DNA of 48,311 nt from an uncultured Bradyrhizobium sp. (GTDB lineage: Bacteria; Pseudomonadota; Alphaproteobacteria; Rhizobiales; Xanthobacteraceae), in the NCBI RefSeq assembly GCF_947648125.1, contig NZ_CANSMR010000042.1, positions 1 through 48,311 on the forward strand, read 5' to 3'. The notes under the pieces are model-generated. The model was not told the DNA's origin. It saw nothing but the letters and a program-made list of their open reading frames with translations, and ran no database searches. Within the stretch, counting starts at the first letter, position 1; the number at the start of each line of letters is the position of its first letter. Positions 23,678 through 45,731 of this stretch are shown one piece after another. The translations under genes were made by a program, and so were the position numbers.

Positions 23678-23833
23678 ATGACAGAATGACGCCCATGTCG
23701 CGTCATTTCTAGGAAGCTCTCCAATACTACAAACACTACCTAAATCCTTATTAATATATATTCTTTATTTCTAGATATAAGTTCAAAAGTAGTGTCATAT
23801 TGTCATTCTGTCATCTAGCAAGATTCGTGCCAA
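23678..23833. repeat. Hub 1: AT-rich element with inverted GTCAT iterons (copy 1)
   Basis: ATGAC occurs at 23678 and 23686, with a variant at 23695. GTCAT occurs at 23702 and then at 23794, 23802 and 23810 with an exact 8-bp period. Between the arrays is an AT-rich core (23742-23780) containing TTATTAATATATATTC and TTTCTAGATATAAGT. The part from 23702 to 23833 is repeated at 45600-45731 with about 85% identity by eye and no gaps. It lies between divergent units (terminase leftward, baseplate rightward). It could be a shared activator site, a replication origin or both. The whole gap 23608-23878 has no gene. Confidence 0.85.
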
Positions 23834-23865
23834 ATTGCGCAGTAGATCGAAATAAGCCCGTGCGC

Positions 23866-23871
23866 TACACT
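23866..23871 (+). promoter_or_regulatory. -10 element for the rightward tail unit, leaderless start
   Basis: TACACT ends seven bases before the ATG at 23879 and lies within GTGCGCTACACTG (23860-23872), a 13-bp string found again at 26517-26529. No ribosome binding site fits in the remaining leader. Confidence 0.55.
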
Positions 23872-23878
23872 GCGCCGT

Positions 23879-24265
23879 ATGGACACGCTGGCACTTGACT
23901 ACGGCAACTGGGATCTCGACGTGGATTCCCGGGGCAACTGGCGTACGGTGGGTTCATCGACGCCCAAGAGCGATGAGACCGGCCCAGGCATGCGCCTGGC
24001 ACAGGACGTGGCCACCCGATGCGTATCCTGGCGCGGCGAGGTCTACTACGACACAACGCAGGGCATCCGCTACGAGACGATCATGGGCGAGGCACCGAAC
24101 ATGGCCCTCCTGCAGAGCGCCTACAACACCGAAGCCCTGAAGGTGCCGGAGTGCCGCACGGCACTGGTGGACTTCGCCTTCGCGGGGCGCGATCAGCGCG
24201 TGCTGTCGGGCAACCTGACCGTCGCCGATTTCAACGGCGCTTCAGGCGCAGTGCAACTCACGTAG
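23879..24265 (+). CDS. Baseplate wedge-like protein (gp25/W type)
   Basis: This 128-aa protein starts the rightward tail unit. The C-terminal two thirds resemble the small gp25-like baseplate family, with QDVATRCVSWRGEVYYDTTQ, then GIRYETIMGEAP, and SAYNTEALKVPECRTALVDF. Related phage proteins sit next to the sheath initiator in the baseplate. The start at 23879 follows the -10 box so closely that a leaderless transcript is likely. Confidence 0.75.
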   Translation: MDTLALDYGNWDLDVDSRGNWRTVGSSTPKSDETGPGMRLAQDVATRCVSWRGEVYYDTTQGIRYETIMGEAPNMALLQSAYNTEALKVPECRTALVDFAFAGRDQRVLSGNLTVADFNGASGAVQLT

Positions 24266-24269
24266 CGCG

Positions 24270-24575
24270 ATGCCGTACACGATCATTCCGTGCCAGCAGG
24301 TCGCAAACCAGGAGTTGTCTTGCATCCTGGACGGCCAACTCGCGCGGATCACGCTCACCACGACCAACTACGGCCTCTTCGCCGACGTGCTCTACAACGA
24401 AGTGCCTGTCGCGAGCGGCCGGCTGTGCCTCGACCGCACGGACATCAACCCGGACCGCTACCGCGGACTACCGCAGTTCCTCGGCTTCGCCGACCTGCAA
24501 GGCGTAGACGATCCGACGTTCGACGGGTTCGGCACACGCTTCCTGCTGATCTACGGAGACCCTCCGGGCAACTAG
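24270..24575 (+). CDS. Baseplate plug-like protein, 101 aa
   Basis: The product resembles small 'baseplate plug' proteins of phages with contractile tails. A beta-rich start (YTIIPCQQVANQELSCILDG) and LARITLTTTNYGLFADVLYN are followed by GLPQFLGFADLQGVDDPTFD and FGTRFLLIYGD at the end. It begins 4 bp after the previous stop. It is the last structural gene before accessory island 2. Confidence 0.75.
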   Translation: MPYTIIPCQQVANQELSCILDGQLARITLTTTNYGLFADVLYNEVPVASGRLCLDRTDINPDRYRGLPQFLGFADLQGVDDPTFDGFGTRFLLIYGDPPGN

Positions 24576-24579
24576 GTTA

Positions 24580-24609
24580 TTGACATTTGCGAAACATCTT
24601 GGTTAGAAT
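24580..24609 (+). promoter_or_regulatory. Sigma70-type promoter, accessory island 2
   Basis: TTGACA (24580-24585) and TAGAAT (24604-24609) are 18 bp apart, the same design as at 75, 30038 and 34112. It begins 5 bp after the baseplate plug gene. Confidence 0.82.
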
Positions 24610-24638
24610 TGCTCCAACGATTCAACCGGAGAACGCAA

Positions 24639-24824
24639 ATGACCTATCAGCGCAATGAGACACCTGAGCCGCTTGCGGCGACGCGCCCGGACACTGACTA
24701 CCCGCTACTGCGCTTGCGCGTAACGACTCCCGGCAACGCACGGCTGGAGATGGGCGCTGTCGTCGCCGGCGTCCTGCAATGGCAGGACGTGCCCATCGTT
24801 CAGCCCACTGACGTTCTCGGCTGA
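24639..24824 (+). CDS. Small island protein, 61 aa
   Basis: The ATG at 24639 follows GGAG at 24628-24631. The product has a polar N terminus (YQRNETPEPLAATRPDTDY) and a beta-rich C-terminal half (LLRLRVTTPGNARLEMGAVV, VLQWQDVPIV). It is the first gene after the island promoter. The leader shares AACCGGAG with the leader of island 4. No family was recognised. Confidence 0.65.
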   Translation: MTYQRNETPEPLAATRPDTDYPLLRLRVTTPGNARLEMGAVVAGVLQWQDVPIVQPTDVLG

Positions 24825-24837
24825 ACCGGAGACCATC

Positions 24838-25071
24838 ATGGGAACCCTGCTCGCCAAACTTCACCCACAGTGGGCCGCGCACGTCGTCATCGACGCGCAG
24901 ACCGGTGCGATCCTGCTGTCGGGCGCTACCGACATGCAGTTCGACGACTGGTACGACCGGCACGAAGCGTGGCGCAAGCCGCGCACCATCGACGAGGTGC
25001 GACCCGACCTGCGCCCGGCCTACTTCCAGGCCGACACCTGCACACACTACCTGGTGGAGGATGCGTCGTGA
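24838..25071 (+). CDS. Small island protein, 77 aa
   Basis: The ATG at 24838 is preceded by CCGGAGA. The product contains HVVIDAQTGAILLSGATDMQ, DWYDRHEAWRKPRTIDEVRP and ends TCTHYLVEDAS. No catalytic or metal-binding motif is clear. The next gene overlaps its end by 4 bp (GTGA). Confidence 0.65.
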   Translation: MGTLLAKLHPQWAAHVVIDAQTGAILLSGATDMQFDDWYDRHEAWRKPRTIDEVRPDLRPAYFQADTCTHYLVEDAS

Positions 25072-25319
25072 GCGCGCAGCACGCGCTCGGGCCGTCCATT
25101 GCGCAAATGCGCGCACGCATGAATAGCGGGCATCGCCAAGTACTCGAAGCTGCGCGCGACGGCCGCAAGCTGACTTCGTCCCGCATCGGGGACGCTCGCG
25201 GACTGATGACCTGCCGCGCCACGCTGATCGGCTGGGGTGCAATCGATGGCGAGTCCCTGACCGACACCGGCCGCAGCTTGCTTGCCGACCTTGCCGAGGC
25301 GCAGGAGGCTGCATCGTGA
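25068..25319 (+). CDS. Small winged-helix-like island protein, 83 aa
   Basis: The GTG at 25068 overlaps the previous stop. The product is basic and helical, with IAQMRARMNSGHRQVLEAAR, then LTSSRIGDARGLMTCRATLI and a short beta turn GWGAIDGESLTDTGRSLLAD. This resembles a winged helix in which 'LTDTGR' follows the wing, as in small phage DNA-binding proteins. The function is inferred only from shape. The stop overlaps the next ATG. Confidence 0.6.
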   Translation: MSAQHALGPSIAQMRARMNSGHRQVLEAARDGRKLTSSRIGDARGLMTCRATLIGWGAIDGESLTDTGRSLLADLAEAQEAAS

Positions 25320-25654
25320 AGTGCCGTTGCTGCGACAGCGACGACCTGCGCGTGCTGGAAAGCCGCGAAGGTCCGCACGATACCGTGCGCCGGCGGCGGG
25401 AGTGCGGCAACGGCCATCGTTTCACCACCATCGAGATGCATACGGACGTGGCCAGCCAGGCACCGCACGCCAAGCAGTTCGCCCGCCGGACCACGAAGCG
25501 CGTAGCCTACGCACGAGACATCGAGATCGCGCAGGCCCTCTACAACGGCAGGCACGTTCTGGCTGAAAAGTACGGACTGAAAATCGCGTCCGTCTACGCC
25601 GCCGCACGGCGCGGCCGCGCGTCCCTTGCACTCCAACGAAAGGCAGCAGCATGA
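25316..25654 (+). CDS. NrdR-like zinc ribbon joined to a helix-turn-helix segment, 112 aa
   Basis: Residues 1-40 match the NrdR zinc ribbon closely: CRCCDSDDLRVLESREG, then RRRRECGNGHRFTTIEMH, with the Cys pairs at 3-6 and a Cys/His pair near 30-34. NrdR continues with an ATP cone, but this protein does not. Instead it ends with ARDIEIAQALYNGRHVLAEK and YGLKIASVYAAARRG, a probable helix-turn-helix. A related C-terminal segment occurs in the 25902 gene (AEKYHVKPTAIDVARRG). It may be a phage transcription factor built from a host-like ribbon. The ATG overlaps the previous stop. Confidence 0.7.
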   Translation: MKCRCCDSDDLRVLESREGPHDTVRRRRECGNGHRFTTIEMHTDVASQAPHAKQFARRTTKRVAYARDIEIAQALYNGRHVLAEKYGLKIASVYAAARRGRASLALQRKAAA

Positions 25655-25905
25655 GCCCCGAATACCTCGAGCACTTGGCAAACTGGATCGATCCTCACGG
25701 GCTGTGGCGCAAGTCGCCGCTCGACGAACTGACGGTTGAGCAGTCGCAGCAGCGCGACGCCGGCATCGCGTTGCGCAGGCATGCCGCGCACGTTCGGAAC
25801 CTGAACAGTCTGCTCGGCACGGAGTACAGCCTGCTCATCACCCCGCTGGCACACAACGTGACGCGCACGACCTCGTGGCCAACACCGGAACGGAGTGCAT
25901 CATGA
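25651..25905 (+). CDS. Small island protein, 84 aa
   Basis: The ATG at 25651 overlaps the TGA of the NrdR-like gene. The product reads MSPEYLEHLANWIDPHGLWR, then DELTVEQSQQRDAGIALRRH and LNSLLGTEYSLLITP. It appears helical, with no recognised motif. The stop overlaps the next ATG. Confidence 0.6.
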   Translation: MSPEYLEHLANWIDPHGLWRKSPLDELTVEQSQQRDAGIALRRHAAHVRNLNSLLGTEYSLLITPLAHNVTRTTSWPTPERSAS

Positions 25906-26210
25906 TCCACCTGTACATCGACATCACCGAGGACGAGGCTGCAAAGCTGCACGCACTCGGCGGCGGATCCTGGATCCGGCTGCAGGTGCAAGCTGCGCCC
26001 GCTCCGACGGGCCTTCGCGGCCTGTACGGGCTTACGGCGACCGAGCGTCAGCAGATGCTGGAAGACCTGCCGCGGCTGGGCCGCGCAGCAACCGCCGAGA
26101 AGTACCACGTCAAGCCAACAGCTATCGACGTAGCCCGGCGCGGCGTAGACCTGCCGCAGGACCTGCGCCGGCGCAAGCGGCGCGACAACTCTGCGCAGGC
26201 GGCAACATGA
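25902..26210 (+). CDS. Small island protein with C-terminal helix-turn-helix-like segment, 102 aa
   Basis: The ATG at 25902 has GGAG eight bases upstream and overlaps the previous TGA; an earlier ATG at 25875 is less likely. The N-terminal part is MIHLYIDITEDEAAKLHALG. The C-terminal half, GLTATERQQMLEDLPRLGRA then AEKYHVKPTAIDVARRG, looks like a DNA-binding helix-turn-helix similar to that of the 25316 gene. The tail is very basic. The two proteins may bind related DNA sites. Confidence 0.6.
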   Translation: MIHLYIDITEDEAAKLHALGGGSWIRLQVQAAPAPTGLRGLYGLTATERQQMLEDLPRLGRAATAEKYHVKPTAIDVARRGVDLPQDLRRRKRRDNSAQAAT

Positions 26211-26497
26211 TTCGCGATCTCGGGGCACTGGTCATCGACATCGTGTTGTTCTGTCCTGCTTGCGGCCTGCAACACATCGACGCACCGGAACGCTCGCTCG
26301 GACCTGGGAACACCGAACGTATCGATTGGGACAACCCACCTCATCGCTCGCACTTGTGCTCTGGGTGCGGTCACAAGTGGCGCCCGAGTGATGTGCACAC
26401 CAACGGCGTGAAAACCATACGTTCCAGAGGGGTGAACGACAGTCCTGCGATCCGTCCGTTGCGCTCAACGGGCCGCGGTGAGCTGCCCGATGAATGA
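26207..26497 (+). CDS. Small zinc-ribbon protein, 96 aa
   Basis: The ATG at 26207 overlaps the previous stop. The product has two zinc-binding pairs: LFCPACGLQHID near residue 16 and HRSHLCSGCGHKWRPSDV near 47-60. This two-part ribbon, with 'HID' after the first pair and 'KWRPS' after the second, is common in small phage proteins of unknown role. It is the last gene of island 2; a promoter-like box and a terminator follow. Confidence 0.75.
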   Translation: MIRDLGALVIDIVLFCPACGLQHIDAPERSLGPGNTERIDWDNPPHRSHLCSGCGHKWRPSDVHTNGVKTIRSRGVNDSPAIRPLRSTGRGELPDE

Positions 26498-26516
26498 CCT
26501 TGTACGGCGACGACCT

Positions 26517-26529
26517 GTGCGCTACACTG
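26517..26529 (+). promoter_or_regulatory. GTGCGCTACACTG promoter-like element
   Basis: This 13-bp string, with -10 box TACACT at 26523-26528, is identical to the one at 23860-23872 that heads the tail unit. Here it is followed by an 80-base leader containing a terminator hairpin, then the tail gene at 26612. It may restart transcription of the tail unit after island 2. Confidence 0.5.
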
Positions 26530-26569
26530 GCTGGGCTTTCTTTGCGGGTCTCGTCCCTTGGTGGGGATT

Positions 26570-26606
26570 AGGGCGCACCGATACCCTGTCGGTGCGCCCT
26601 TTATTT
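26570..26606 (+). terminator. Intrinsic terminator directly upstream of a tail gene
   Basis: A perfect 12-bp stem (AGGGCGCACCGA with TCGGTGCGCCCT, 7-nt loop) is followed by TTTATTT. It ends only five bases before the ATG at 26612, so it lies between the promoter-like box at 26517 and the gene. It ends island 2 transcripts and may also attenuate the tail gene. Confidence 0.9.
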
Positions 26607-26611
26607 CGTCC

Positions 26612-27193
26612 ATGCTGAAAACCTACACCCTGAACCTCACCGGCCGCGATGCCGGCACCGCGCTACGACTGACCGAGCTGCCGGCACTGGTCGCCGACCG
26701 CGCTGCGCGCGCTGCGCTGCGCGCCGTGGGCGAGTCCGAAGACGGCGGTGTCATCACGCTGGTATTCAAGCACTTGAAACAGGTGCGCGACCTGGGTGAG
26801 CGCGGTCTGCGGCTGTTGAGCCCGTTCGTTGACGCCCGCCTGCCTGACGGCACCGCGCTTGACCTGGGCGCTACCGGTGCGCACGGCGTGCGCGATTGGC
26901 GCAACATCGAGAAGATCCAGCAGCAGGCGCTCTACCTGCACACCGGCTTCATCATCGAGCGCGAATCGGTCGACATCCCCGTAGCCATGGTGGGTGACCA
27001 CATCCTGCACGGCAGCACGGAGGCACGCGTCACGTTCTGTTCGCCGCTACTGGCCGCTGTACTAGAATCAAAACTGGCGACCTACCATGAGCTGGAGACC
27101 GTCCTGAGCACCGAGGATTGCTTCAATTTGCAGGAAGTAAACAACGTCCGCGCCATCCGCAACTGGCACGAATCGCAGAAAGCACCACCATGA
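26612..27193 (+). CDS. Tail assembly chaperone-like protein, 193 aa
   Basis: The ATG at 26612 is chosen because the product then begins MLKTYTLNLTGRDAGTALRL with LTELPALVADRAARAALRAV, a typical start for phage tail assembly chaperones. No ribosome binding site fits between the terminator and the ATG. The middle part includes RDWRNIEKIQQQALYLHTGF and the C terminus LATYHELETVLSTEDCFNLQ. The motif TGRDAG recurs in the next gene, so the two may be paralogues. Chaperones coat the tape measure protein before tube assembly. Confidence 0.7.
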   Translation: MLKTYTLNLTGRDAGTALRLTELPALVADRAARAALRAVGESEDGGVITLVFKHLKQVRDLGERGLRLLSPFVDARLPDGTALDLGATGAHGVRDWRNIEKIQQQALYLHTGFIIERESVDIPVAMVGDHILHGSTEARVTFCSPLLAAVLESKLATYHELETVLSTEDCFNLQEVNNVRAIRNWHESQKAPP

Positions 27194-27603
27194 ATCCACT
27201 CGACGACGCCCTGACCTCGACCATCATCGCCGCGACCGGCCGCGATGCCGGCAAGCAGTTCACGCTGCTCGAAATCGATCCGATGACGAAGGCGGGCTAC
27301 GTGCTGCGCTTCAATTCGGCGCTGCGCATCGACTCGTACCAGGCGCTGATCGACCAGTGGCGCCAGAGCACTGAAGAGGCCGAAGAGCCGCCCATCGACA
27401 CGATCATGAAGACGATGCAGGGCGCGGACCCCCTGGTGCTGCACACGCTGCTCAACGAACTGCTCGACTACGTGCGCATCTCACCCGACCCGCAACATCC
27501 CGGCGTCAACCGCAAGCTGCTGCCGAACGACATCCGCGAGATGAAGACGCTCGGCGAAGTGCTGCTCGCCCTTGTGAAGCTCAACTTCATCGGCGAGGCA
27601 TGA
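27190..27603 (+). CDS. Tail assembly chaperone-like protein, 137 aa
   Basis: The ATG at 27190 overlaps the previous stop. The product has ATGRDAGKQFTLLEIDPMTK near its start, ALIDQWRQSTEEAEEPPIDT, and ends LGEVLLALVKLNFIGEA. Position just before the baseplate and tape measure genes fits a tail chaperone. I saw no slippery heptamer at its end joining it to the next frame. It shares TGRDAG and general plan with the 26612 product. Confidence 0.65.
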   Translation: MNPLDDALTSTIIAATGRDAGKQFTLLEIDPMTKAGYVLRFNSALRIDSYQALIDQWRQSTEEAEEPPIDTIMKTMQGADPLVLHTLLNELLDYVRISPDPQHPGVNRKLLPNDIREMKTLGEVLLALVKLNFIGEA

Positions 27604-27604
27604 G

Positions 27605-28198
27605 ATGGTGGCCACGGTCACGGGGTTGAACATCCTCTCGGCGATCGCCTCGCGGCTGCCGAGGCTGAACCCACCGCGGCCGATCTATGCCATCGTCGAC
27701 AGCGAGACCTTCGAGCCTCTGACCGTGCCTGACTCGTGGGGCGAATTCGCCCCGCGCTACGAGAGCCAGACATCCGACTACCCGGTCGAAAAGGGCGCGT
27801 TCGCGACCTACAACAAGGTGCGTCGCCCGACCGGTGTGTCCGTGACGCTCATCAAGACCGGTTCCGACGTTGCGCGCTTCACGTGGCTCGCGGCCATCCG
27901 ACAGGCTGAAACACAGGCCCCGACGACCCTCTACACGCTCATCTCGCCACAGGGCGTGTTCGTCGACTACACGCTGAAGGATATGGCGTACGAAACGCGC
28001 CAGGACCGCGGCAGCAACATCCTGTACCTGACCGTACAGTTCGTGGAGATTCCGCAGATCCCGTCGAGCGACGATTCGAAGACCAACGTGCAGGAGCCCA
28101 AAAGCAGCCCCATCGACCGCATCGGCCAGGTCTATACGAACGCCGCGAACAGCGTGCAGACCGCGCTGATCGACGCGAAGAACTTCATCCTGCAGTGA
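27605..28198 (+). CDS. Baseplate/tail-tip protein, 197 aa
   Basis: The start codon is 2 bp after the previous stop codon. The product contains RPIYAIVDSETFEPLTVPDS, then WGEFAPRYESQTSDYPVEKG and FATYNKVRRPTGVSVTLIKT, which resembles the N-terminal domain of Dit-like or baseplate hub-connecting proteins. It ends with a Ser/Asn-rich linker and a helix. It precedes the tape measure gene. The precise baseplate role is uncertain. Confidence 0.7.
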   Translation: MVATVTGLNILSAIASRLPRLNPPRPIYAIVDSETFEPLTVPDSWGEFAPRYESQTSDYPVEKGAFATYNKVRRPTGVSVTLIKTGSDVARFTWLAAIRQAETQAPTTLYTLISPQGVFVDYTLKDMAYETRQDRGSNILYLTVQFVEIPQIPSSDDSKTNVQEPKSSPIDRIGQVYTNAANSVQTALIDAKNFILQ

Positions 28199-28209
28199 GG
28201 CATTGACCC

Positions 28210-30033
28210 ATGGCCAACGCGAACATCGTCGATGAACTGCTGGTCCTGCTGCGCCTGGACACGTCGCAATACAAGAAGGCCGACAAGGAGGTCGAAAAGC
28301 AGGTCACGACCACCGAGAAGAAGCTGAAGAAGGTCGACGACGCACGCAACAAGCGCATGAAGGAAAGCTCGGCAGCGGTGAAGCAGTTCGCCGGCCAGCT
28401 GCGCTCGTTCGCGCTCACGGTGGGTTCGGTGCTCGGCATCGGCGGCGGGGCCGCCGGGCTGGTGCAGGCCGTCGTCGCCCTCACGAATTTCGAGACCGGC
28501 TTGCGGCGCGCGAGCGTGTCCACAGGCCTGTCGAACCGCGAAATGCAGGCCTGGGGTTCGGCGGCACGCCGCCTGGGCGCTGATGCCGAAGCGGGCCGCG
28601 CGGCCATCGCCGACCTGGCGCGTGAGCAGAAACAATTCCACCTGACCGGCAGCGCGCCGACCATGCAGGCCTTTGCCCGCATGGGTATCAACGTCTCGCC
28701 AGATGCCAGCATCACGGACATTCTAGCCAACGCACAGCGGGTCTACCGCGGCTCGTCGGCTGCGCAGCAGGGGCAGATCGAATCGGGCCTGTCGGCCTCC
28801 GGTGTATCGAATGACCTGATCCTGCTCATCAAGTCCGAAAAGAACGTGCGCGAAGAGTTCGCGCGCTCCTATGCCGAGTCCGCCACCGAGAACCGCAAGG
28901 CGCTCGACAGCGTGACGAACGCGCTCGAGGCGGCCAAGAATTCCGCGCTCAATATTGCCAACGCGCTCGCCTCCGCGCTGCAGCCGCAGATCGAGCAATT
29001 CGCGCAGTGGCTGAGCAAGGGCGCGCAGCAGGTCAGCGCCTTCGTTGACAAGGTGATTGCTGCCGGCGGCGGCGTGCAGGGCTTCACGAAAGTACTGGAC
29101 GCCGAAGCCCCAGAGCTCGCACGTCTGATGCGCGCCTTGGGGACTGCCATTGGCTTCCTCGGTGAAGGCCTCGACGTGGTGATCTTCGGCTTCAAGAAAC
29201 TGGCCGCCGCCGCCGAGGCGCTCTACAACTGGATCGACGAGAAGGTCGGCTACGTCATCGGCGGCCCTGGCAAGGTGAAGGGCGCCGTGGCCGACTTCGG
29301 CGAAGGCGTCGCAAAGGGCTGGCGCATGCTCGTGGGCGAGGCGCGCACAGGCTCGCCCGGTGGCGGGGTGATCCTCACGCCTGAAGCGCAGGCACGGCTC
29401 GCGGCGGGCGCTTCAGGCGGCTCGACGGCGGGCAGCACCGCAGCCGCTGCGCCGACCGGCTCTGCACCCGTTGCACCACGGGGCGGCAGCGGGCAGGACG
29501 ACGTCATGCGCGGCCTGATCGCGCGCGGCTTCACGGTGGACCAGGCCGCTGCGGTCGCCGCGAACATCAAACACGAGTCCAACTACAACCCGGCGGCCTA
29601 CAACCCGGCCGGCGGGGGCATTGGTGCGCACGGCCTGTTCCAGCTGCGCGGCGACCGCGCCAAGGCCTTTCAGGCGCGCTACGGCAAGTTGCCGAGCCAG
29701 GCCACGATCGACGAGCAGCTCGACTTCTTCGCGAGCAATGATCCTGAGGAAGCGCGCTCACGCCGCGCAGCCTTTGCCAGCGGCGGTACTGCCGCGCAGC
29801 TCGGCACCGCCGTGTCGGCCAAGTACGAACGGCACGGCAACGTCGCCGAAGACCTGCGCCGCGGGCAGACGGCAGCGACCATCGCCGGCCAGTACGGCCA
29901 GCAGCAGGCCTCGGTCGGCCAACAGATCAACCTCAATGGCCCGATCACCGTGCAGGCAAACAACCCGCAGGAGCTGGTCGGAGGGATCCAACGCGTCGGC
30001 GGGGCCACAAATTACAACTCAGCGGTGCGATAA
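28210..30033 (+). CDS. Tail tape measure protein with C-terminal tail lysozyme domain
   Basis: This 607-aa protein sets tail length. The N-terminal region is coiled coil (EKQVTTTEKKLKKVDDARNK), followed by a hydrophobic segment (LTVGSVLGIGGGAAGLVQAV) and long helices. Residues from about 430 to 545 match a phage tail lysozyme domain, with MRGLIARGFTVDQAAAVAAN, IKHESNYNPAAYNPAGGG with the probable catalytic Glu, and AHGLFQLRGDRAKAF. This domain would help cross the peptidoglycan at injection. The last residues, rich in Gln and Asn, resemble chaperone- or hub-binding tails. Confidence 0.9.
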   Translation: MANANIVDELLVLLRLDTSQYKKADKEVEKQVTTTEKKLKKVDDARNKRMKESSAAVKQFAGQLRSFALTVGSVLGIGGGAAGLVQAVVALTNFETGLRRASVSTGLSNREMQAWGSAARRLGADAEAGRAAIADLAREQKQFHLTGSAPTMQAFARMGINVSPDASITDILANAQRVYRGSSAAQQGQIESGLSASGVSNDLILLIKSEKNVREEFARSYAESATENRKALDSVTNALEAAKNSALNIANALASALQPQIEQFAQWLSKGAQQVSAFVDKVIAAGGGVQGFTKVLDAEAPELARLMRALGTAIGFLGEGLDVVIFGFKKLAAAAEALYNWIDEKVGYVIGGPGKVKGAVADFGEGVAKGWRMLVGEARTGSPGGGVILTPEAQARLAAGASGGSTAGSTAAAAPTGSAPVAPRGGSGQDDVMRGLIARGFTVDQAAAVAANIKHESNYNPAAYNPAGGGIGAHGLFQLRGDRAKAFQARYGKLPSQATIDEQLDFFASNDPEEARSRRAAFASGGTAAQLGTAVSAKYERHGNVAEDLRRGQTAATIAGQYGQQQASVGQQINLNGPITVQANNPQELVGGIQRVGGATNYNSAVR

Positions 30034-30037
30034 ACGC

Positions 30038-30067
30038 TTGACATAGCGTTTAGGTTTGCGTTAGATT
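30038..30067 (+). promoter_or_regulatory. Sigma70-type promoter, accessory island 3
   Basis: TTGACA (30038-30043) and TAGATT (30062-30067) are 18 bp apart, 4 bp after the tape measure stop. The design matches the promoters at 75, 24580 and 34112. Confidence 0.8.
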
Positions 30068-30100
30068 CGTAACCACTGAATCAACTGCAAAGGAAGCACC

Positions 30101-36222: not shown

Positions 36223-36228
36223 TATCAT
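36223..36228 (+). promoter_or_regulatory. -10 element upstream of baseplate J, leaderless start
   Basis: TATCAT ends seven bases before the ATG at 36236 and lies within GCTATCATCGCG (36221-36232), a string also used by the minus-strand promoter at 18546-18557. No convincing -35 box or ribosome binding site is present. Confidence 0.5.
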
Positions 36229-36235
36229 CGCGGCC

Positions 36236-37498: not shown

Positions 37499-37511
37499 CG
37501 GAGGTTCGACC

Positions 37512-38198: not shown

Positions 38199-38207
38199 GA
38201 TACGCAC

Positions 38208-39560: not shown

Positions 39561-39580
39561 GTTGAACGGGTACAAACGTC

Positions 39581-40165
39581 ATGAAATACATCCTCTACGA
39601 CATCAACACCAAAGCCGTAGTCCAATGGCAGGACACGGACGTCTACAGCTACAACGAGCCAACTTCGACCCAGTCGCGGGTCATTGTTCCCGAGGATGCC
39701 GTGCCCGCAGCGTTCGATCCGTACAACTGGCCCTCGGGGTGGTGGTACGTCGATGGAGCGCTCACGCAGGTGGCGCCACCCCCGCCGCTGAGCGAAGTTG
39801 CCATGTACAAGCGCTGGGCCGTGACTGCGCGGCGTGCGCAGGCCGAAGAGGTAGGTGTCGTGCTGGATGACAACTCGACCTTTGCGCCCGTCCCTGCGCA
39901 GATGGGGCGTATCGCGTCGCTTGCACTGGGGCACGCATTCATCGGCGTGACGGAAGTCGACATCGAGCTCGGCGGCGAATGGCGACACTTCGCAGCGGCT
40001 GACCTAGCTGACGCCTATGCCAAGTACGTGCGCCAGCGCGAGGCCTCCTACGCGGCCGAGCGCGTGCACCTGGAGGCAATCGCGGTGCTGCTGACCGCGG
40101 GCGATCGTCCCGCACTCGAAGCCTACGACACCACGGCCGGCTGGCCGGCGCCGGAAGCGCCGTGA
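39581..40165 (+). CDS. Tail fibre assembly-like protein (DUF4376-like)
   Basis: This 194-aa protein follows the fibre gene. The N-terminal part, YILYDINTKAVVQWQDTDVY then PYNWPSGWWYVDGALTQVAP, resembles Tfa-like proteins. The C-terminal helical part has ARRAQAEEVGVVLDDNSTFA and RREASYAAERVHLEA-like helices (RQREASYAAERVHLEAIAVL), matching DUF4376. It may assist fibre folding or form part of the fibre. Its stop overlaps the holin start (GTGA). Confidence 0.8.
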   Translation: MKYILYDINTKAVVQWQDTDVYSYNEPTSTQSRVIVPEDAVPAAFDPYNWPSGWWYVDGALTQVAPPPPLSEVAMYKRWAVTARRAQAEEVGVVLDDNSTFAPVPAQMGRIASLALGHAFIGVTEVDIELGGEWRHFAAADLADAYAKYVRQREASYAAERVHLEAIAVLLTAGDRPALEAYDTTAGWPAPEAP

Positions 40166-40551
40166 AGATCGACTTCGACGAGATCTATGCGAGTGTCGCG
40201 CAGGCGGCGCTCGCATTCTTCGGCGGCCTCATCGGCGCGCTGATGCGCCGCGAGGTCTCCAGCTGGCAAACCGCGTTGCTGGCCGCCTGCGGCGCCGGCT
40301 TCGTGGGCTTCCTGGTGGCCAAGTTCTGCCGGGCCACAGGTGTGAGCGAGGATCTGACCTACGCCTTCGTGGGCGTCTCGGGCTGGCTCGGCGCGGCACG
40401 CACCATCGACTATCTCGAAAAGCTCATCGAGGCGCGGCTGGGCGCACGGTTTCCGCGACGTACGACTGATACACCATCTAACGTGCCGGCGGCGTCGGAC
40501 GGTGCTAAGGTGGAAACCCTACCCGACGACAAGAAAGCGAACTCGCAATGA
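40162..40551 (+). CDS. Holin-like protein (LydA type)
   Basis: The GTG at 40162 overlaps the previous stop. The 129-aa product has three likely membrane segments: AQAALAFFGGLIGALM, ALLAACGAGFVGFLVAKFC and AFVGVSGWLGAARTI. A charged, disordered C terminus of about 45 residues follows. This matches phage holins of the LydA group, which open the inner membrane at lysis time. It lies at the end of the tail unit, facing the endolysin gene on the other strand. Confidence 0.8.
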   Translation: MKIDFDEIYASVAQAALAFFGGLIGALMRREVSSWQTALLAACGAGFVGFLVAKFCRATGVSEDLTYAFVGVSGWLGAARTIDYLEKLIEARLGARFPRRTTDTPSNVPAASDGAKVETLPDDKKANSQ

Positions 40552-40787
40552 GCGTCGACACACAACGCAGTCTGGCCGGCTTCCTGCTGGTCCTCACCTT
40601 GGCGAACCTGTTCGCCTCGGGTGCAATCTTCCTCACAACGCGCAACCTGCGCGCTGATGCCCATGCACAGCTCGAGCAGGTATCGAAGACCGTCGAACGC
40701 CTGGACGACGCCGTCACACGCTTGTGCGACAAGTCCGCTGGAGTCTGTGCACCGCCAGTAGCGATGCAGCCCCTGTCGAAGCCCTGA
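40548..40787 (+). CDS. Small lysis-cluster membrane protein, 79 aa (spanin- or antiholin-like)
   Basis: The ATG at 40548 overlaps the holin stop. A single membrane segment (LAGFLLVLTLANLFASGAIF, residues 9-28) is followed by a short helical region with heptads (AHAQLEQVSKTVERLDDAV) and two Cys. The topology fits a short inner-membrane spanin or an antiholin, but no lipoprotein partner was found. The stop is 3 bp from the end of the convergent 3TM holin gene. Confidence 0.6.
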   Translation: MSVDTQRSLAGFLLVLTLANLFASGAIFLTTRNLRADAHAQLEQVSKTVERLDDAVTRLCDKSAGVCAPPVAMQPLSKP

Positions 40788-40790
40788 GGC

Positions 40791-41354
40791 TCAGCCCTTT
40801 CCGGGCTGTTCCGCAATCTTGCGCAGCGAGTCACCTGCACGCTTCGAGCCGGCCGAACTGCCGAGCCAGTAGTTCGCCACCTGCGTGAAGCTGACGGTCA
40901 GTGCACCAAACAGCACATTCAACAGGTTGGCCGTGCGCTCATCCCAATTGCGTTCCACAAGGAACAGCATGTACACGCAGGTGAAGAAGCCGCCCACGAT
41001 GAGCGCGCTGATGACCACTGGCGCCCACGAGATGCCGCTGCCGGCCTGGGCCAGCGCTACGGTCTGCTTGCGCGCGCTGTCGGTGTCGGCAAGGTAGGCC
41101 GCGTCGCTCGCCTGGTCGATGCGGGCCATCTCGACTTGCATCGAGATCTCGGCCTGCTTCAGCGCCGATATCTGCTCACCAGTCAGCGTACCTGATGCGA
41201 GCGCCGCAGCCAGGTCGGCCTCAGACGCATTGGGGTTGCCGAACACCTTGTCGGCGATGACCTTGACGGCCGCGCCGGCCAGCGGGCCGCCGAGGGCCGC
41301 CGCGAGGCCCGGCGCTACGGCACCGATAGTTGCTTTCCAGTCGAAGTCGCTCAT
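40791..41354 (-). CDS. 3TM-type holin
   Basis: This 187-aa protein resembles the 3TM holins of gene transfer agents and phages. Hydrophobic stretches are IGAVAPGLAAALGGPLAGAA, WAPVVISALIVGGFFTCVYM with LFLV, and TANLLNVLFGALTVSFTQVA. The middle has the typical ISALKQAEISMQVEMARIDQ helix. The final residues are basic. It is on the minus strand with the endolysin, so the phage has two holin-like proteins in convergent units. The ATG overlaps the stop of the upstream gene. Confidence 0.82.
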   Translation of the reverse strand: MSDFDWKATIGAVAPGLAAALGGPLAGAAVKVIADKVFGNPNASEADLAAALASGTLTGEQISALKQAEISMQVEMARIDQASDAAYLADTDSARKQTVALAQAGSGISWAPVVISALIVGGFFTCVYMLFLVERNWDERTANLLNVLFGALTVSFTQVANYWLGSSAGSKRAGDSLRKIAEQPGKG

Positions 41355-41551
41355 AGCGGACCTCCTGCACGGCAGGTGATCGTGCCCGGCGGCAACGGCC
41401 CCGTTTGCACGTACTGCGGGGATCCGATCTGCACGGGCTTTGACCAGTCAATAACGCCTAGTGGACGACTGCGTGCAGCCTCGACTTCCAGCACAGCGAC
41501 ACGTTCGCGCAACTTGGCGATCTCTTCGCGTAGGGCTTTGATCTCATCCAT
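41351..41551 (-). CDS. Small coiled-coil protein in the lysis cluster, 66 aa
   Basis: The ATG at 41551 follows GGAGA. The first 25 residues (MDEIKALREEIAKLRERVAV) are a strong coiled coil with leucine/isoleucine heptads. The remainder is a short Pro/Gly-rich tail with one Cys. It lacks a membrane segment. It overlaps the endolysin gene by 8 bp and the holin gene by 4 bp, so it belongs to the lysis operon. The function is unknown; such coiled coils may be structural or regulatory. Confidence 0.65.
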   Translation of the reverse strand: MDEIKALREEIAKLRERVAVLEVEAARSRPLGVIDWSKPVQIGSPQYVQTGPLPPGTITCRAGGPL

Positions 41552-42227
41552 GGTTGGTCTCCAGTACAGGGCGCACAAGGCGCGTGAGTCGTTGAACCTC
41601 GGCAAGTCCCAGCGTGCCGCCGTTGACGCGCTTACGCAGCGCCGTTGTCTCGCCGAGCATGCTGTCGGGAATTCGATCCTCCCACCACTCGATGCCGGCT
41701 TCGAGTGCGAAGCGTGGCTGCGCGAGCAGGTCGGGAATACCTTCGAGGTTCTGGCCTACCAGGTCGCCCACGCGCCGGTAGTTGTCGGCGCCCGTGATGC
41801 CTGGGATGCCGCGGCCGCGGTAGCGCCAGCCATCGTCGGGCAGGATGTTGCCGAGGTTCTTCCGACCCCACTCGCCGCCGTAGACGATGTTCGCGATGGC
41901 CCGCTGGTCGGCGGCGTGCTTGCCCGGCACGCGCCCGACTGCCTGCGCTTGCTCGGGCGTGATGCGGTGCGCGCCGAACGTGGCCAGCAGCGCATCGGGC
42001 GTGTAGTTCAGGTTCTCTTCGAGCTGCGTGAGCATCGTGCTTTCGTGCAGCGCGTTCGGTAGGAAATCTTCGAGATCGTCATCGCCCCGCGAGAACGAGT
42101 CGGGCTTGAGCGTGTCGGCGAAGACCTGCGCCCAGAGCTGTGCGGTCGCGGCGTCGACGCCGCAGGCGGTCAGGATGGCGAGCCAGTGAGCGGTGGTACG
42201 TGGAGGCATGAGAACGCGATCGGTCAT
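41544..42227 (-). CDS. Endolysin, GH19 chitinase-like
   Basis: This 227-aa enzyme should cleave peptidoglycan glycan strands. It matches the GH19 phage lysin group: FLPNALHESTMLTQLEENLN with the probable catalytic Glu in HES, then YTPDALLATFGAHRITPEQA, ANIVYGGEWGRKNLGN, DDGWRYRGRGIPGITGADNY and the late IEWWEDRIPD. No signal peptide is evident, so it depends on a holin to reach the periplasm. Its ATG overlaps the stop of the homing endonuclease gene. Confidence 0.92.
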   Translation of the reverse strand: MTDRVLMPPRTTAHWLAILTACGVDAATAQLWAQVFADTLKPDSFSRGDDDLEDFLPNALHESTMLTQLEENLNYTPDALLATFGAHRITPEQAQAVGRVPGKHAADQRAIANIVYGGEWGRKNLGNILPDDGWRYRGRGIPGITGADNYRRVGDLVGQNLEGIPDLLAQPRFALEAGIEWWEDRIPDSMLGETTALRKRVNGGTLGLAEVQRLTRLVRPVLETNHG

Positions 42228-42934
42228 TCTGGTATCTCCTGCTTGGCCGTCTGGATGGCCGCTAAGGCGGATTGTAGGCTGTCGAAGCGGCCTAAGTGTC
42301 GGTACTTTCCGGCGATACTGACGCGTGCCGCAAACTTCGTACCCACGATCGATACACCCCGCACGCCTGTCTTGTTGTCTCGTCGCACGGTATCGGCTAG
42401 CGCGTTTTTGACTTTTTGAATGTGCGCCGCTGTCTGCGGCTTTCCGAGCTTGGCTTTCCGTTGCTTTTCCCGCGTCTCGGCGCTTGCTGTTTTGCCTGTC
42501 AACGCCGCGGCGAGTTTAGCCAGGTGCTGCGTGCTGCGCGCTTTTGAGTACGCGGACATTCGCTGGCGTGTCTCCGGAGATTTTGTCAGACCTAACTTGA
42601 CGGCAGACTGCTTGGCTCGCGTTTCTGCGCTGTGCGTGCGGCCTTCCATGGCGGCGCCTGCAACCAACGCGGAGTTGTAGCGCACCCGCGCCGGCGTTGC
42701 GTCGATGAAATTTTGTTCACGCGCGATCAGTTTGTCGCGTGGGCAGAGTTCGAGCACGACGAACTGCAGTGTTGCAATGCCGTATTTATTGGCCGCGAGT
42801 TGTAACGCCCGACAGTGATGCGTGCCGCGCTGCAAATCCGTGCGGTGCTTACTCCACCGCTTCGGGATGTGTGCAGAACTGCCGATATACCGCTTGCCGG
42901 ACGGCGCGACGATCGCGTAAACCCCACAGTTCAA
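42224..42934 (-). CDS. GIY-YIG homing endonuclease with AP2-like C terminus
   Basis: This 236-aa protein opens with GVYAIVAPSGKRYIGSSAHI, the GIY-YIG motif, followed by RWSKHRTDLQRGTHHCRALQ and the catalytic Glu region (EQNFIDATP). The middle has NUMOD3-like repeats (GRTHSAETRAKQSAVKLG, GKTASAETREKQRKAKLGKP) that bind DNA. The C terminus, TGVRGVSIVGTKFAARVSIA then GKYRHLGRFDSLQSALAAI, is AP2-like. It lies between the resolvase and endolysin genes with ATGA overlaps on both sides, an unusually neat fit for a mobile gene. Confidence 0.9.
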   Translation of the reverse strand: MNCGVYAIVAPSGKRYIGSSAHIPKRWSKHRTDLQRGTHHCRALQLAANKYGIATLQFVVLELCPRDKLIAREQNFIDATPARVRYNSALVAGAAMEGRTHSAETRAKQSAVKLGLTKSPETRQRMSAYSKARSTQHLAKLAAALTGKTASAETREKQRKAKLGKPQTAAHIQKVKNALADTVRRDNKTGVRGVSIVGTKFAARVSIAGKYRHLGRFDSLQSALAAIQTAKQEIPE

Positions 42935-43311
42935 GGAAGCTCCGTTATGTCCAGTATCGCGGCACCCGCACCCTGCGGCGTGCCGCGCAATATCATCAAT
43001 CCGTCTATCTGGCTGTCATCCACCCAGACGCGCTGTCTCGTGAGAACATCAAAAACGTGCTTCTCACGATTAGCGATATCATAGCACCTATTCGCAAGTG
43101 CTGCGGGAGCTTGTAGTGTCATCACCACCTGCAGCCGACCGCGCAGGGGGTCGACAGGGCCCGTAGGCAGCGCGTTTGCACACGTCACGGCGTACTTGCG
43201 CGCCGATTCCGATAGCACGACACGGCCCGCCACGGCGCGCCAGATCCGGTTGACCGATGGGGGCCAAGGAAGGACCAGCGAGAGCGAGCGCGTAGGGTTG
43301 TAGCGGGTCAT
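42931..43311 (-). CDS. rusA: RusA-like Holliday junction resolvase
   Basis: This 126-aa protein is taken from ATG 43311 (MTRYNPTRS); an ATG at 43326 lies inside the terminator stem. It has LVLPWPPSVNRIWRAVAGRV early, then CYDIANREKHVFDVLTRQRV and WVDDSQIDGLMI, the aspartate-rich core in which RusA binds metal. It would resolve branched DNA before packaging. The gene sits directly after a minus-strand terminator, with no ribosome binding site visible. Its stop overlaps the next ATG. Confidence 0.88.
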   Translation of the reverse strand: MTRYNPTRSLSLVLPWPPSVNRIWRAVAGRVVLSESARKYAVTCANALPTGPVDPLRGRLQVVMTLQAPAALANRCYDIANREKHVFDVLTRQRVWVDDSQIDGLMILRGTPQGAGAAILDITELP

Positions 43312-43346
43312 ATGAGAAAAGCCCACCAGCGAGGCGCTGGCGGGCT
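43312..43346 (-). terminator. Intrinsic terminator just upstream of the resolvase gene
   Basis: On the minus strand a 12-bp stem (one G-U pair, 3-nt loop; 43346-43320) is followed by TTTTCTCAT (43320-43312 region) and then immediately by the resolvase ATG at 43311. It separates the 50-aa gene from the resolvase gene. The layout repeats the one at 26570-26612. Confidence 0.8.
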
Positions 43347-43359
43347 TGCTGCGGCTATT

Positions 43360-43512
43360 TCAGAACTGTACCTCGTCCTCGAAATCGTCCCATTCGTTGA
43401 TCCAGTCCGCCGCTTCACGCAACCGTCGCAATTTGGCACGCGAGCGGGAAGCGGCAAGCGCTTGGTTCACTCCCCGAGAGAAATGATCCGCCGGTGTCGC
43501 CGTTTCGTTCAC
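43360..43512 (-). CDS. Very small acidic-tailed phage protein, 50 aa
   Basis: A GTG at 43512 overlaps the TGA of the ssDNA-binding protein gene (GTGA), and the frame stops at 43360. The product reads VNETATPADHFSRGVNQALA, then RAKLRRLREAADWINEWDDF and ends EDEVQF. The basic helix followed by 'EAADWINEWDDFED' is recalled from small proteins of Burkholderia phages. Its acidic aromatic C terminus resembles those by which ssDNA-binding proteins dock partners. Function unknown. Confidence 0.7.
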   Translation of the reverse strand: MNETATPADHFSRGVNQALAASRSRAKLRRLREAADWINEWDDFEDEVQF

Positions 43513-44192
43513 GCGGCCGTGGCGAAAGGGTTCGCGCCGGCGGTGGCCGCGGCGGCGAAGGGGTTCGCGTTGGCTGCCGGTGCGGGCGCGGCAGCAGGTG
43601 CTGCGGCGTTGCCCGTCGACGCGCCTGCGAAGGGGTTCGCACTGCCAGCCACGGCACCAGCCGCTGCAGGTTGCGCGAACTTCTCGAAGGCGTTCACCAT
43701 GGCACCGTTGCCGATGGCCAGGCGCTCGCCGTCTTCGACGGCCATCACGCCATCGATGTTGAACGAGACACCCTTACCGCCGGTCGCGTGGCTCCATGCG
43801 AAGGCGCTCAGGGCGGCACGCACGCGCTTGCCGGCGTAGAAGCACTGGCGGATCTTCGCGGCATCGGTGGGAACGTCCTGCATGAGCTGCTTGCCCGATT
43901 CGTCGGCCACGTAGGGCGCGTACTGCGTCGAGGCGCGCACGATGAGCCAGTCGGGCGGAATGCCGACGATGGGCTTCTTTGTGGAGGCGTTGGGCTTGAC
44001 GTTGACTTGAATGTCCGCGGTCAGCGTCGCGACTTGCAGGCACAGCGCATGGAGCGCAGCGCCGGCTGCTGGCGGGAAGGCGATGACGGCGTAGAACTCG
44101 GGGCCGCGACCGGGCTTGAGCTTGTTCACCTGGGCGCTCGCGAGGGCCGAGCTGGTGAGGATGGCAACGTGGTCGATGAGATTTTGAGACAT
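43509..44192 (-). CDS. ssDNA-binding protein-like (DUF2815-like)
   Basis: This 227-aa protein resembles the DUF2815 group, thought to act as phage single-stranded DNA-binding proteins. It has FYAVIAFPPAAGAALHALCL, IPPDWLIVRASTQYAPYVAD, the core KIRQCFYAGKRVRAALSAFA with WSHATGGKGVSFNIDGVMAV, and GERLAIGNGAMVNAFEKFAQ. The C-terminal 55 residues are Ala/Pro-rich, with three copies of NPFA near the end. It sits with the nuclease and resolvase genes in the recombination segment. The start at 44192 is supported by the family pattern. Confidence 0.78.
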   Translation of the reverse strand: MSQNLIDHVAILTSSALASAQVNKLKPGRGPEFYAVIAFPPAAGAALHALCLQVATLTADIQVNVKPNASTKKPIVGIPPDWLIVRASTQYAPYVADESGKQLMQDVPTDAAKIRQCFYAGKRVRAALSAFAWSHATGGKGVSFNIDGVMAVEDGERLAIGNGAMVNAFEKFAQPAAAGAVAGSANPFAGASTGNAAAPAAAPAPAANANPFAAAATAGANPFATAA

Positions 44193-44288
44193 GTTGAAGA
44201 TTCCATTCAGGTTGAGATTTGAAGAACCCCCGTATAGCGCCGGGAGGCACGCGCTGGATTTGATTGTAGGTAGCGGGTTATCGAAGTG

Positions 44289-45482
44289 TCAAGCGCCTTT
44301 CGCATAATTCTTGAACATTGTCGCGATGGCACTCGGCGCCTGCACGTCGACAACCTGGATCGTGCGCGAGTTTGCCGAGCGCTTCACGAGCTCGGCATGG
44401 AACTCGACCGGAAGCACGGGCAGCGCGTTGGAGATGGCCACGGGCTGCAGCAGGTCGAGCCGGTTCATGGCCAGCAGCGTCTCGGCCGCGGCCTTCGGGT
44501 CTTTCCACATCTGGCGCCCCTGCGTCTCCTTGACCCGCAGGTTCTTGTGTCCGGCCTTCACGAGCTGCTCGATGCGTTCTTCGATGTCCTCCCAAAACGC
44601 TTTAAAGGCGGTGCGCGCGGCGAACAACTGCACGATGTCGTCTTCGGGCATATCGAGCAGGTTCTTTTCGCCAGCATAGGCCGCCAAAGCGGTACTGAGC
44701 GAGCTGTGCACCGCCGGGCACTTCGGCTTGCCTTTGCAGTACCGGCAGTGGTCGCCCGGCACTGGCGCGCCCGGGTTCGCGACGGCGGCCACCTCGCGGA
44801 CCAGCTTGGCGCGCTCGATCGCAAGCCAGGCAGCGTCGAGCGCCAGGGTTTGCGATGGCGCGGCCAGCGGCCGGCGGGGCTGGTACACCGCAAGCGCGAG
44901 CTTCTCGGGGCGGATGCCCTTCTCGCCCAGCGCTTCGGCTGCTGCGACGGCATAGGCTGCCAGTTGCTCGTTGGGCTCGTCGTAGGTGCCCACGTCCACG
45001 TCGGCGAAGCCGTACTTGTAGTCGACCACGATGAGGTGCCACACACCGTCGAGACGGTACAGCACCAGGCAATCGGCAGTGCCGAACAGGTCCGGCGAGA
45101 TCGAGCCGATGGCTACGCGCATCTCGACCACCACGGCGACGTCCGTCGCACCGGCCGGGATCCGCGATTTGATGAAGTCGCGGTAGCCGCGGCCGTGGTG
45201 GCGCAGCGTCTCGTTCCAACGTTGCGGCGTGTCGCCCTTCAGGTCGAGCCCAGGCGGCGGGACCTGGTCGGGCGCAACGGCGCCAGCCGCCGGCGCGCCG
45301 GGTAGCGCAAAGTGCTGCTTGACGTAGTGCTCGGCCACGGTGTGGGCGCAAGTTCCCTCGGCGGCTGCGGGGCCGGATGAATCGGACATGCCTTTGGACA
45401 TTTGGACGCTGATGGGGCAGCTTTTCCAGCGTTTGCGCCCGGAGAATGAGAGAATTGAGTGCGAAACTTGCGGGTTTGTCAT
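44289..45482 (-). CDS. PD-(D/E)XK nuclease (DUF2800, RecB/Cas4-like)
   Basis: This 397-aa protein has AEGTCAHTVAEHYVKQHF early, then VAIGSISPDLFGTADCLVLY with the catalytic Asp and WHLIVVDYKYGFADVDVGTY with the DxK pair, plus PNEQLAAYAVAAAEALGEKG. A Cys cluster, GDHCRYCKGKPKCPAVHSS, may bind iron-sulphur or zinc as in Cas4/AddB-like nucleases. The C-terminal part is helical. It starts the leftward unit from hub 2. A role in recombination or host DNA breakdown is likely. Confidence 0.85.
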   Translation of the reverse strand: MTNPQVSHSILSFSGRKRWKSCPISVQMSKGMSDSSGPAAAEGTCAHTVAEHYVKQHFALPGAPAAGAVAPDQVPPPGLDLKGDTPQRWNETLRHHGRGYRDFIKSRIPAGATDVAVVVEMRVAIGSISPDLFGTADCLVLYRLDGVWHLIVVDYKYGFADVDVGTYDEPNEQLAAYAVAAAEALGEKGIRPEKLALAVYQPRRPLAAPSQTLALDAAWLAIERAKLVREVAAVANPGAPVPGDHCRYCKGKPKCPAVHSSLSTALAAYAGEKNLLDMPEDDIVQLFAARTAFKAFWEDIEERIEQLVKAGHKNLRVKETQGRQMWKDPKAAAETLLAMNRLDLLQPVAISNALPVLPVEFHAELVKRSANSRTIQVVDVQAPSAIATMFKNYAKGA

Positions 45483-45515
45483 GGCTTTCTTGCGCTCGGT
45501 CGTGAATGTGGCACG

Positions 45516-45526
45516 AATGTAGCGCG
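45516..45526 (-). promoter_or_regulatory. GCGCTACATT -10 element for the leftward replication/lysis unit
   Basis: On the minus strand GCGCTACATT carries the -10 box TACATT, about 35 bp before the ATG at 45482. It resembles GCGCTACACT at 13918, 23863 and 26519. A TAGACT about 17 bp upstream could serve as a weak -35 box. Confidence 0.4.
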
Positions 45527-45576
45527 AATCGAAAGCAAAGTCTAGCTATTTATCGGAGAGTGCCCACTAACCTGCC

Positions 45577-45731
45577 ATGACGGATGACATGACTGACGTG
45601 TCATTTCTAGGAAGCTCTACCAACTACTAAACGGTACCTTAATCCTTATTAATATACATTCTCTATTTCTAGATATAAGTCATAAAGTACTGTCATAGTG
45701 TCATTCTGTCATCTAGCAAGATTCGTGCCAA
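45577..45731. repeat. Hub 2: AT-rich element with inverted GTCAT iterons (copy 2)
   Basis: ATGAC occurs at 45577, 45584 and 45589. GTCAT occurs at 45600, 45679, 45692, 45700 and 45708, the last three with an exact 8-bp period. The AT-rich core (about 45641-45680) contains TTATTAATATACATTC and TTTCTAGATATAAGT. The segment 45600-45731 is the counterpart of 23702-23833. It lies between the divergent nuclease (leftward) and primase (rightward) genes. The rest of the 365-bp gap 45483-45847 holds the minus-strand -10 element and no supported gene. Confidence 0.85.

What the first reader, a model, noticed from the sequence alone, without database searches (positions are those of the whole stretch)
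23678..45731. Two copies of an AT-rich, GTCAT-iteron element sit at the two divergent hubs of the genome
Seen directly: 23702-23833 and 45600-45731 align without gaps over 132 bp at about 85% identity by eye, in a GC-rich genome. Each has ATGAC copies on the left and three GTCAT copies at exact 8-bp steps on the right, around a TTATTAATATA core. Each separates a leftward from a rightward unit, so all four units of the phage start at one or other copy. Inference: they could be binding sites for one phage regulator that coordinates the units, or replication origins (iterons plus an easily melted core), or both. Conservation of the left and right ends with divergence between them points to protein-bound ends.
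Basis: partly seen in the sequence, partly recalled or inferred. Interest (0 to 1): 0.82.

Follow-up and report, generated by a model that had tools for sequence, protein, structure and literature searches.

The report
Paired origin-like repeats in a phage
This virus of bacteria carries the same short AT-rich, repeat-flanked element at the two places where its genes start outward; the element looks like a replication starting point kept as a matched pair, and in related viruses the stretch between the two copies lies in either direction.

Summary
The copies (23676-23833, 45575-45731) are 114/132 identical ungapped, hold the contig's two lowest-GC 130-bp windows, and have no third copy. The contig is a circular, Bcep781-like phage.

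The pattern belongs to a lineage. In 37 of 38 genomes or same-sample contig pairs the two divergent hubs share one element. In the window's sister group the copies match better within a genome than between genomes: concerted evolution. Usual anatomy: inverted arrays of ~8-bp iterons around an AT-rich core, the iteron changing by clade.

Both arrangements are common (24 P, 26 Q of 50 labelled), agree at both hubs in 38 of 38, and switch 4-6 times on a TerL tree. Copies lie direct (27) or inverted (10).

The parts
23676..23833 (+). hub element, copy 1 (between gp19/TerS-like and wedge genes)
   Evidence: alignment; neighbours
45575..45731 (+). hub element, copy 2 (between exonuclease and primase genes), direct orientation to copy 1
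23678..23690 (+). left iterons of copy 1 (ATGAC at 23678 and 23686)
   Evidence: 13-bp inverted match to the right array
23794..23814 (-). right iterons of copy 1 (GTCAT at 23794, 23802, 23810)
45577..45593 (+). left iterons of copy 2 (ATGAC at 45577, 45584, 45589)
45692..45712 (-). right iterons of copy 2 (GTCAT at 45692, 45700, 45708)
23748..23758 (.). TTATTAATATA in the AT core, copy 1
45646..45656 (.). TTATTAATATA in the AT core, copy 2
23817..23833 (.). box AGCAAGATTCGTGCCAA beside the right array, copy 1
   Evidence: conserved in sister phages
45715..45731 (.). same box, copy 2
23866..23871 (+). -10-like TACACT, 7 nt before the wedge gene, outside the element
   Evidence: sequence; for relatives
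23615..23620 (-). -10-like TACACT, 7 nt before the gp19/TerS-like gene, outside the element
   Evidence: sequence
23095..23607 (-). gp19/TerS-like gene, first of the head unit
   Evidence: 66% to Bcep781 gp19; phrog_16968, unknown function
23879..24265 (+). baseplate wedge gene (gp51 homologue), first of the tail unit
44289..45482 (-). exonuclease gene (gp20 homologue), first of the recombination/lysis unit
45887..48311 (+). VapE-family primase-helicase gene (gp52 homologue); runs over the circle's junction to about position 75; upstream ATG at 45788 possible
48050..48250 (+). predicted winged-helix part of the primase (residues 722-788), proposed iteron reader
   Evidence: AlphaFold model; PriRep1 alignment reaches residue 798
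23834..45574 (.). segment between the copies, inverted relative to Bcep781 (arrangement Q)

Best explanation
Each hub element is an iteron-type replication origin of the phage. Two facing arrays of ~8-bp iterons hold the phage's own VapE/PriRep-like primase-helicase through its C-terminal winged helix, and the AT-rich core between them is melted so that forks leave both ways, along the direction of the main transcription units. The phage keeps two such origins. Recombination between the copies (perhaps annealing-type: the phage encodes an exonuclease, an ssDNA-binding/annealing-like protein, a RusA resolvase and an SF2 helicase) keeps the pair matched and now and then leaves the segment between them inverted. 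SHOWN by sequence comparison: two copies, anatomy, lineage-wide pairing, concerted change in the sister group, both arrangements of the segment, homology of the primase to PriRep1. INFERRED: primase-iteron binding, melting, origin activity and the recombination route.
Against: No direct evidence of binding or replication. Cumulative GC-skew extremes lie at 1566 and 28567, not at the copies; AT skew changes sign at both hubs but follows the coding strand. No DnaA box in the window hubs. An unbiased 5-mer comparison of 18 hub sets with primase domains did not single out the winged helix (Mantel r 0.09, p 0.18; partial r -0.01); only iterons picked by hand after seeing one search gave partial r 0.27, p 0.012 (17 genomes), and the putative recognition helix alone gave p 0.11. 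13 of 38 hubs show no significant repeated 6-mer. In the four Bcep phages the same hub between genomes (94.8-100%) is closer than the two hubs within a genome (91.2-93.8%), so homogenisation is not continuous. SaPI origins lie directly downstream of rep; here one copy is upstream of the primase and the other ~22 kb away. L064/L112 has the VapE primase but no shared hub element was found. The C-terminal part alone found no PDB or Pfam sequence relative.
Confidence: 0.6

Rival explanations
1. The elements are paired operators of a phage transcription regulator that coordinates the units starting at the hubs; that regulator, not the primase, reads the iterons.
For: They sit between divergent units; -10-like hexamers lie 14-15 nt before the aligned start in 14 of 43 distinct gp19/TerS-side and 17 of 35 wedge-side flanks. 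Relatives are annotated with HTH or sigma-region-4-like proteins and the window has an NrdR-like zinc-ribbon protein at 25316-25651.
Against: Element polarity is not tied to the units: copies are direct in 27 and inverted in 10 of 37 pairs, and an element may lie between two structural units (Q) or between a structural and an early unit (P). No regulator was found whose type follows the iteron type, but this was not searched systematically.
Confidence: 0.22
2. The elements are recombination sites first: they exist to invert or resolve the segment between them.
For: The P/Q breakpoints lie at the hubs. PMC9968065 (section 8 and passages) reports 197-bp inverted repeats in BsXeu269p/3 and similar ones in KPhi1, MYK3 and phiXaf18 and suggests a recombination site.
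Against: Resolvase and Phage_integrase profiles match other contigs of the assembly but not the phage contig. In 27 of 37 pairs the copies are direct, which a simple crossover does not invert. Close relatives share one arrangement and copy orientation (4 of 4 Bcep, 3 of 3 Beograduvirus, 6 of 6 Xap, 6 of 6 Xhv), so flipping is rare.
Confidence: 0.1
3. On the inversion only (this does not compete with the function readings): the elements do not drive it; inversions with both ends in the two divergent gaps are the ones that leave the operons whole, so selection alone puts the breakpoints there, and some P/Q changes may be exchanges of modules between phages.
For: Both gaps are operon-safe; P/Q is stable inside the close groups examined.
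Against: In the sister group the whole element, not only the iterons, is matched within genomes, which points to exchange between the hubs.
Confidence: 0.4

Closest known systems
SaPI origins with PriRep1/Rep helicases, and SCCmec Cch2
   Same: D5/VapE-like initiator helicase whose C-terminal domain reads short iterons (PMC7581432, passages); PriRep1 is the best fold match of the phage primase
   Different: Two copies ~22 kb apart in a phage, between divergent units rather than directly downstream of rep; binding not shown here
Satellite phage P4 alpha protein with ori1 and crr (recalled, no call)
   Same: Primase-helicase that reads iterons at two separate sites
   Different: Relation not tested; iterons and layout differ
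Herpes simplex oriL/oriS (recalled, no call)
   Same: Initiator sites facing each other around an AT spacer, between divergent genes, in more than one copy
   Different: Unrelated virus and initiator; works-like comparison only
197-bp inverted repeats of BsXeu269p/3, KPhi1, MYK3, phiXaf18 (PMC9968065)
   Same: In BsXeu269p/3, KPhi1 and phiXaf18 these are the inverted-orientation members of this element; MYK3 not examined here
   Different: The passages read treat them as a possible recombination site and do not mention iterons, direct-copy relatives, an initiator or the P/Q inversion
Yeast 2-micron plasmid inversion (recalled, no call)
   Same: Two repeats dividing a circle, one arc found in both directions
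   Different: A dedicated recombinase acts there; no such gene matched on this phage contig

Membership tests
SaPI/PriRep-type iteron replicon | VapE/D5-like primase-helicase | tested here: met
SaPI/PriRep-type iteron replicon | C-terminal dsDNA-binding domain on the helicase | tested here: inconclusive
   Winged-helix order predicted and PriRep1 alignment reaches residue 798; no sequence relative for this part alone; binding untested
SaPI/PriRep-type iteron replicon | Iteron arrays with an AT-rich region | tested here: met
   Window. Lineage: 25 of 38 hubs significant
SaPI/PriRep-type iteron replicon | Origin directly downstream of the rep gene (as described for SaPIs) | tested here: not met
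   Copy 2 lies upstream of the primase, copy 1 ~22 kb away; so it is said to work like a SaPI-type replicon, not filed as one
SaPI/PriRep-type iteron replicon | Initiator binds the iterons and replication starts there | not testable with these tools
   needs binding assays and marker frequency
Bcep781-like phages | Homologous terminase, capsid, sheath, polymerase, helicase | tested here: met
   TerL 63%, MCP 70%, sheath 66%, polymerase 66%, helicase 71% to Bcep781
Bcep781-like phages | Bcep781 order of the four gene clusters | tested here: not met
   Segment between hubs inverted (Q) in the window and 25 other labelled rows; a variant within the lineage, genus not assigned
Site-specific invertible segment (Mu G / P1 C kind, recalled) | Phage-encoded serine or tyrosine recombinase | tested here: not met
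   No PF00239 or PF00589 match on contig C42

The most novel reading that the evidence does not exclude
The phage lineage keeps two homologous, initiator-specific origins as a concertedly evolving pair, and crossing-over between them during replication both matches the pair and isomerises the genome (inverted copies flip the ~20-kb arc, direct copies split or join circles), so that origin duplication, arc inversion and the shift to concatemer replication for packaging are one process, with initiator and both origins changing specificity together.
Probability: 0.18. Interest if true: 0.82.

Novelty: new variant of a known kind. Interest (0 to 1): 0.62.

Why it matters
No replication origin is annotated in the eight phage records read in full. 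A paired, fast-changing origin with an identifiable initiator would give a directly testable origin-initiator code across many natural variants, a case of concerted evolution between two distant sites in a small genome, and a reason why two gene orders coexist in one phage lineage.

Tried and rejected
GC-skew support for an origin: none. DnaA boxes (TTATNCACA): none in the window; phiXaf18 has one at 28984 in its primase hub. Sigma-70 scan: one weak minus-strand hit per copy, expected 0.5-0.6. Automated iteron/primase covariation: not supportive for the winged helix (the partial p printed there for the AAA region against itself is meaningless). Hand-picked covariation: exploratory. Rfam and tRNA: none in the window. 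Element in 264 other same-genus host genomes: none. Element DNA against the phage collection: none. Genome-contig scan: only distant TerL relatives (27-46%), not used. Paper searches gave PMC7581432 and PMC7145576 (passages); one search found no paper on PriRep1. Plain Foldseek, and a fold of the C-terminal part alone, could not be run.

Rows dropped or weak: L043, L052, L060 (IMG/VR copies of Bcep1, Bcep43, KPhi1) and loci with TerL scores under 400 bits; loci under 250 bits without a primase; near-duplicates above 85% (21 to 18); Xap, Xhv, L016, L018, L022, BsXeu rows in the 23. The 38 rows are not independent (4 Bcep, 3 Beograduvirus, 6 Xap, 6 Xhv); five pairs join contigs of one sample on the assumption that they are one phage (L011/L094, L004/L095, L029/L113, L050/L103, L053/L100); the L010 match is only 50 bp.

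Not in print: searches (listings; passages read) gave only PMC9968065 on the inverted repeats. The original Bcep781 genome paper was not found in this library, so earlier mention there is not excluded.
Full report
WHAT IS THERE. The window is a 48,311-base contig (C42 of an 8.57-Mb draft bacterial genome) whose ends share 55 identical bases, so it closes to a circle. Its genes are those of a Bcep781-like phage: TerL 63%, major capsid 70%, sheath 66%, DNA polymerase 66% and helicase 71% identical to Bcep781. The two copies are confirmed: 114 of 132 positions identical ungapped, 85.5% over 159 gapped columns, 31% and 34% GC in a 64.8% GC contig, the two lowest-GC 130-bp windows, no third copy. 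Runs of three iterons at 8-bp steps occur twice in the contig and in none of 200 simulated genomes.

THE PAIR IS A LINEAGE TRAIT. I fetched whole genomes of Bcep781, Bcep43, Bcep1, BcepNY3, XapPhi5, phiXaf18, PhiXhv-5 and KPhi1, hub stretches of eleven further named phages, and IMG/VR contigs found by TerL and primase. In 37 of 38 genomes or same-sample contig pairs the TerS-side hub and the primase-side hub share an element; the exception is L064/L112, and the L010 match is only 50 bp. These rows are not independent: four Bcep, three Beograduvirus, six Xap and six Xhv phages are among them, and five pairs rest on joining contigs of one sample. A further genome, L067, also has a shared element (75% over 193 columns). 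In the window's sister group the copies within a genome are 85.5-97.4% alike, while the same hub compared between sisters is 74-84% alike over 75-156 columns, and the other hub is equally distant. L029 and L038, in one supported TerL clade, have elements that do not align with each other although each pair is about 98% alike. In the Bcep phages, by contrast, the same hub between genomes (94.8-100%) is closer than the two hubs within one (91.2-93.8%), so homogenisation is not continuous everywhere.

ANATOMY. In many genomes the element is an AT-rich core between two facing arrays of short repeats: ATGACA-type in the window and others, and CTGACGA-, ACAGACG-, GTACGGAGG- or GGTGGGAT-type elsewhere (names are mine, read by eye). 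25 of 38 TerS-side hubs have a 6-mer repeated beyond shuffles at p<=0.05, often in the order ++ ... -- at 7-9 bp steps; 13 do not, and in L053 the repeated word is an AT microsatellite. 15 of 23 elements have an internal inverted repeat. In seven copies from four sister phages the iterons, most of the box AGCAAGATTCGTGCCA and parts of the core are conserved. In the window -10-like TACACT hexamers lie outside the element, 7 nt before the wedge and the gp19/TerS-like genes; such hexamers sit 14-15 nt before the aligned start in 14 of 43 distinct TerS-side and 17 of 35 wedge-side flanks. In the Bcep phages the shared stretch is longer and takes in the structural-gene side of the hub.

THE INVERSION. 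In Bcep781 the hubs are gp19/exonuclease and wedge/primase (P). In the window they are gp19/wedge and exonuclease/primase (Q): the ~22-kb segment between the hubs is inverted. Of 62 TerL rows 24 are P, 26 Q and 12 have no readable hub (after dropping three duplicate records and weak TerL matches). Where both hubs could be read they agree in 38 of 38 (27 P, 11 Q). On a quick TerL tree the arrangement changes at least 6 times over all rows and 4 times without seven long-branched rows; in that smaller tree well-supported branches alone force 2. Some changes could be exchanges of modules between phages rather than new inversions. The copies are direct in 27 and inverted in 10 of 37 pairs, with at least 4 changes among 26 rows of the tree. 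Close relatives share arrangement and orientation, so switches are recurrent but rare. A published Ralstonia phage, PQ43W, has its exonuclease (-) next to its primase (+) and TerL (-) at the far end of the map, which fits Q (table passages of PMC11324598). PMC2771037 (passages) describes the four alternating clusters of Bcep781. The phage contig has no serine- or tyrosine-recombinase match but has an exonuclease, an ssDNA-binding/annealing-like protein, RusA and an SF2 helicase, so homologous or annealing recombination is the likelier route (inference).

TESTS THAT DID NOT HELP. A 5-mer comparison of 18 hub sets with primase domains did not favour the winged helix. With hand-picked iterons in 17 genomes the winged helix had the highest correlation (0.38) and partial correlation (0.27, p 0.012) among the regions tried, residues 700-735 had 0.21 (p 0.03) and the putative recognition helix alone 0.16 (p 0.11); exploratory only. 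Cumulative GC skew has no extremum at the hubs. The C-terminal part alone had no sequence relative in PDB or Pfam.

VERDICT. Real feature, confirmed and enlarged. Most likely paired iteron-type origins (0.6) read by the phage primase; an operator for a transcription regulator is the main functional rival (0.22). Whether hub recombination or operon-safe selection sets the inversion breakpoints is open. Inverted-copy members were reported before as repeats and a possible recombination site (PMC9968065, section 8 and passages); the lineage-wide pair, its iterons, its concerted change and the two arrangements were not met in the searches made.

Noticed in passing
window 14007-15509 (+), 42224-42934 (-), 32506-33249 (+): Three endonuclease-like genes by PHROG match: HNH/homing (phrog_559), homing (phrog_314, weak GIY-YIG match) and endonuclease VII-like (phrog_1035); the first runs against its unit.
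   Followed up: partly
window 135-821: Low-complexity protein with SAE/WSA repeats and strongly repetitive DNA; only a sub-threshold Pfam match.
   Followed up: no
window 25316-25651 (+): NrdR-like zinc-ribbon N-terminal domain in the tail unit, a possible regulator.
   Followed up: no
window 6898-7473 (+): Protein matching the PHROG family named cysteine dioxygenase.
   Followed up: no
whole contig: A circular phage without a resolvase or integrase match sits as its own contig in a bacterial draft assembly; carrier state or contamination not resolved.
   Followed up: no
L152 1-2181 (-), contig of L067: Primase with the lineage's N-terminal part but a different helicase half.
   Followed up: partly
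hubs of L021, PhiXhv-2, PhiXhv-18, PhiXhv-28: Repeated stretch offset by 127 bp inside one hub, that is a tandem duplication in some phages.
   Followed up: no
IMG/VR contigs of L037/L104 and L056/L110: Contigs that begin and end within about 30-440 bp of the TerS-like and primase genes, probably inside the hubs, as expected for assembly breaks at repeats.
   Followed up: no
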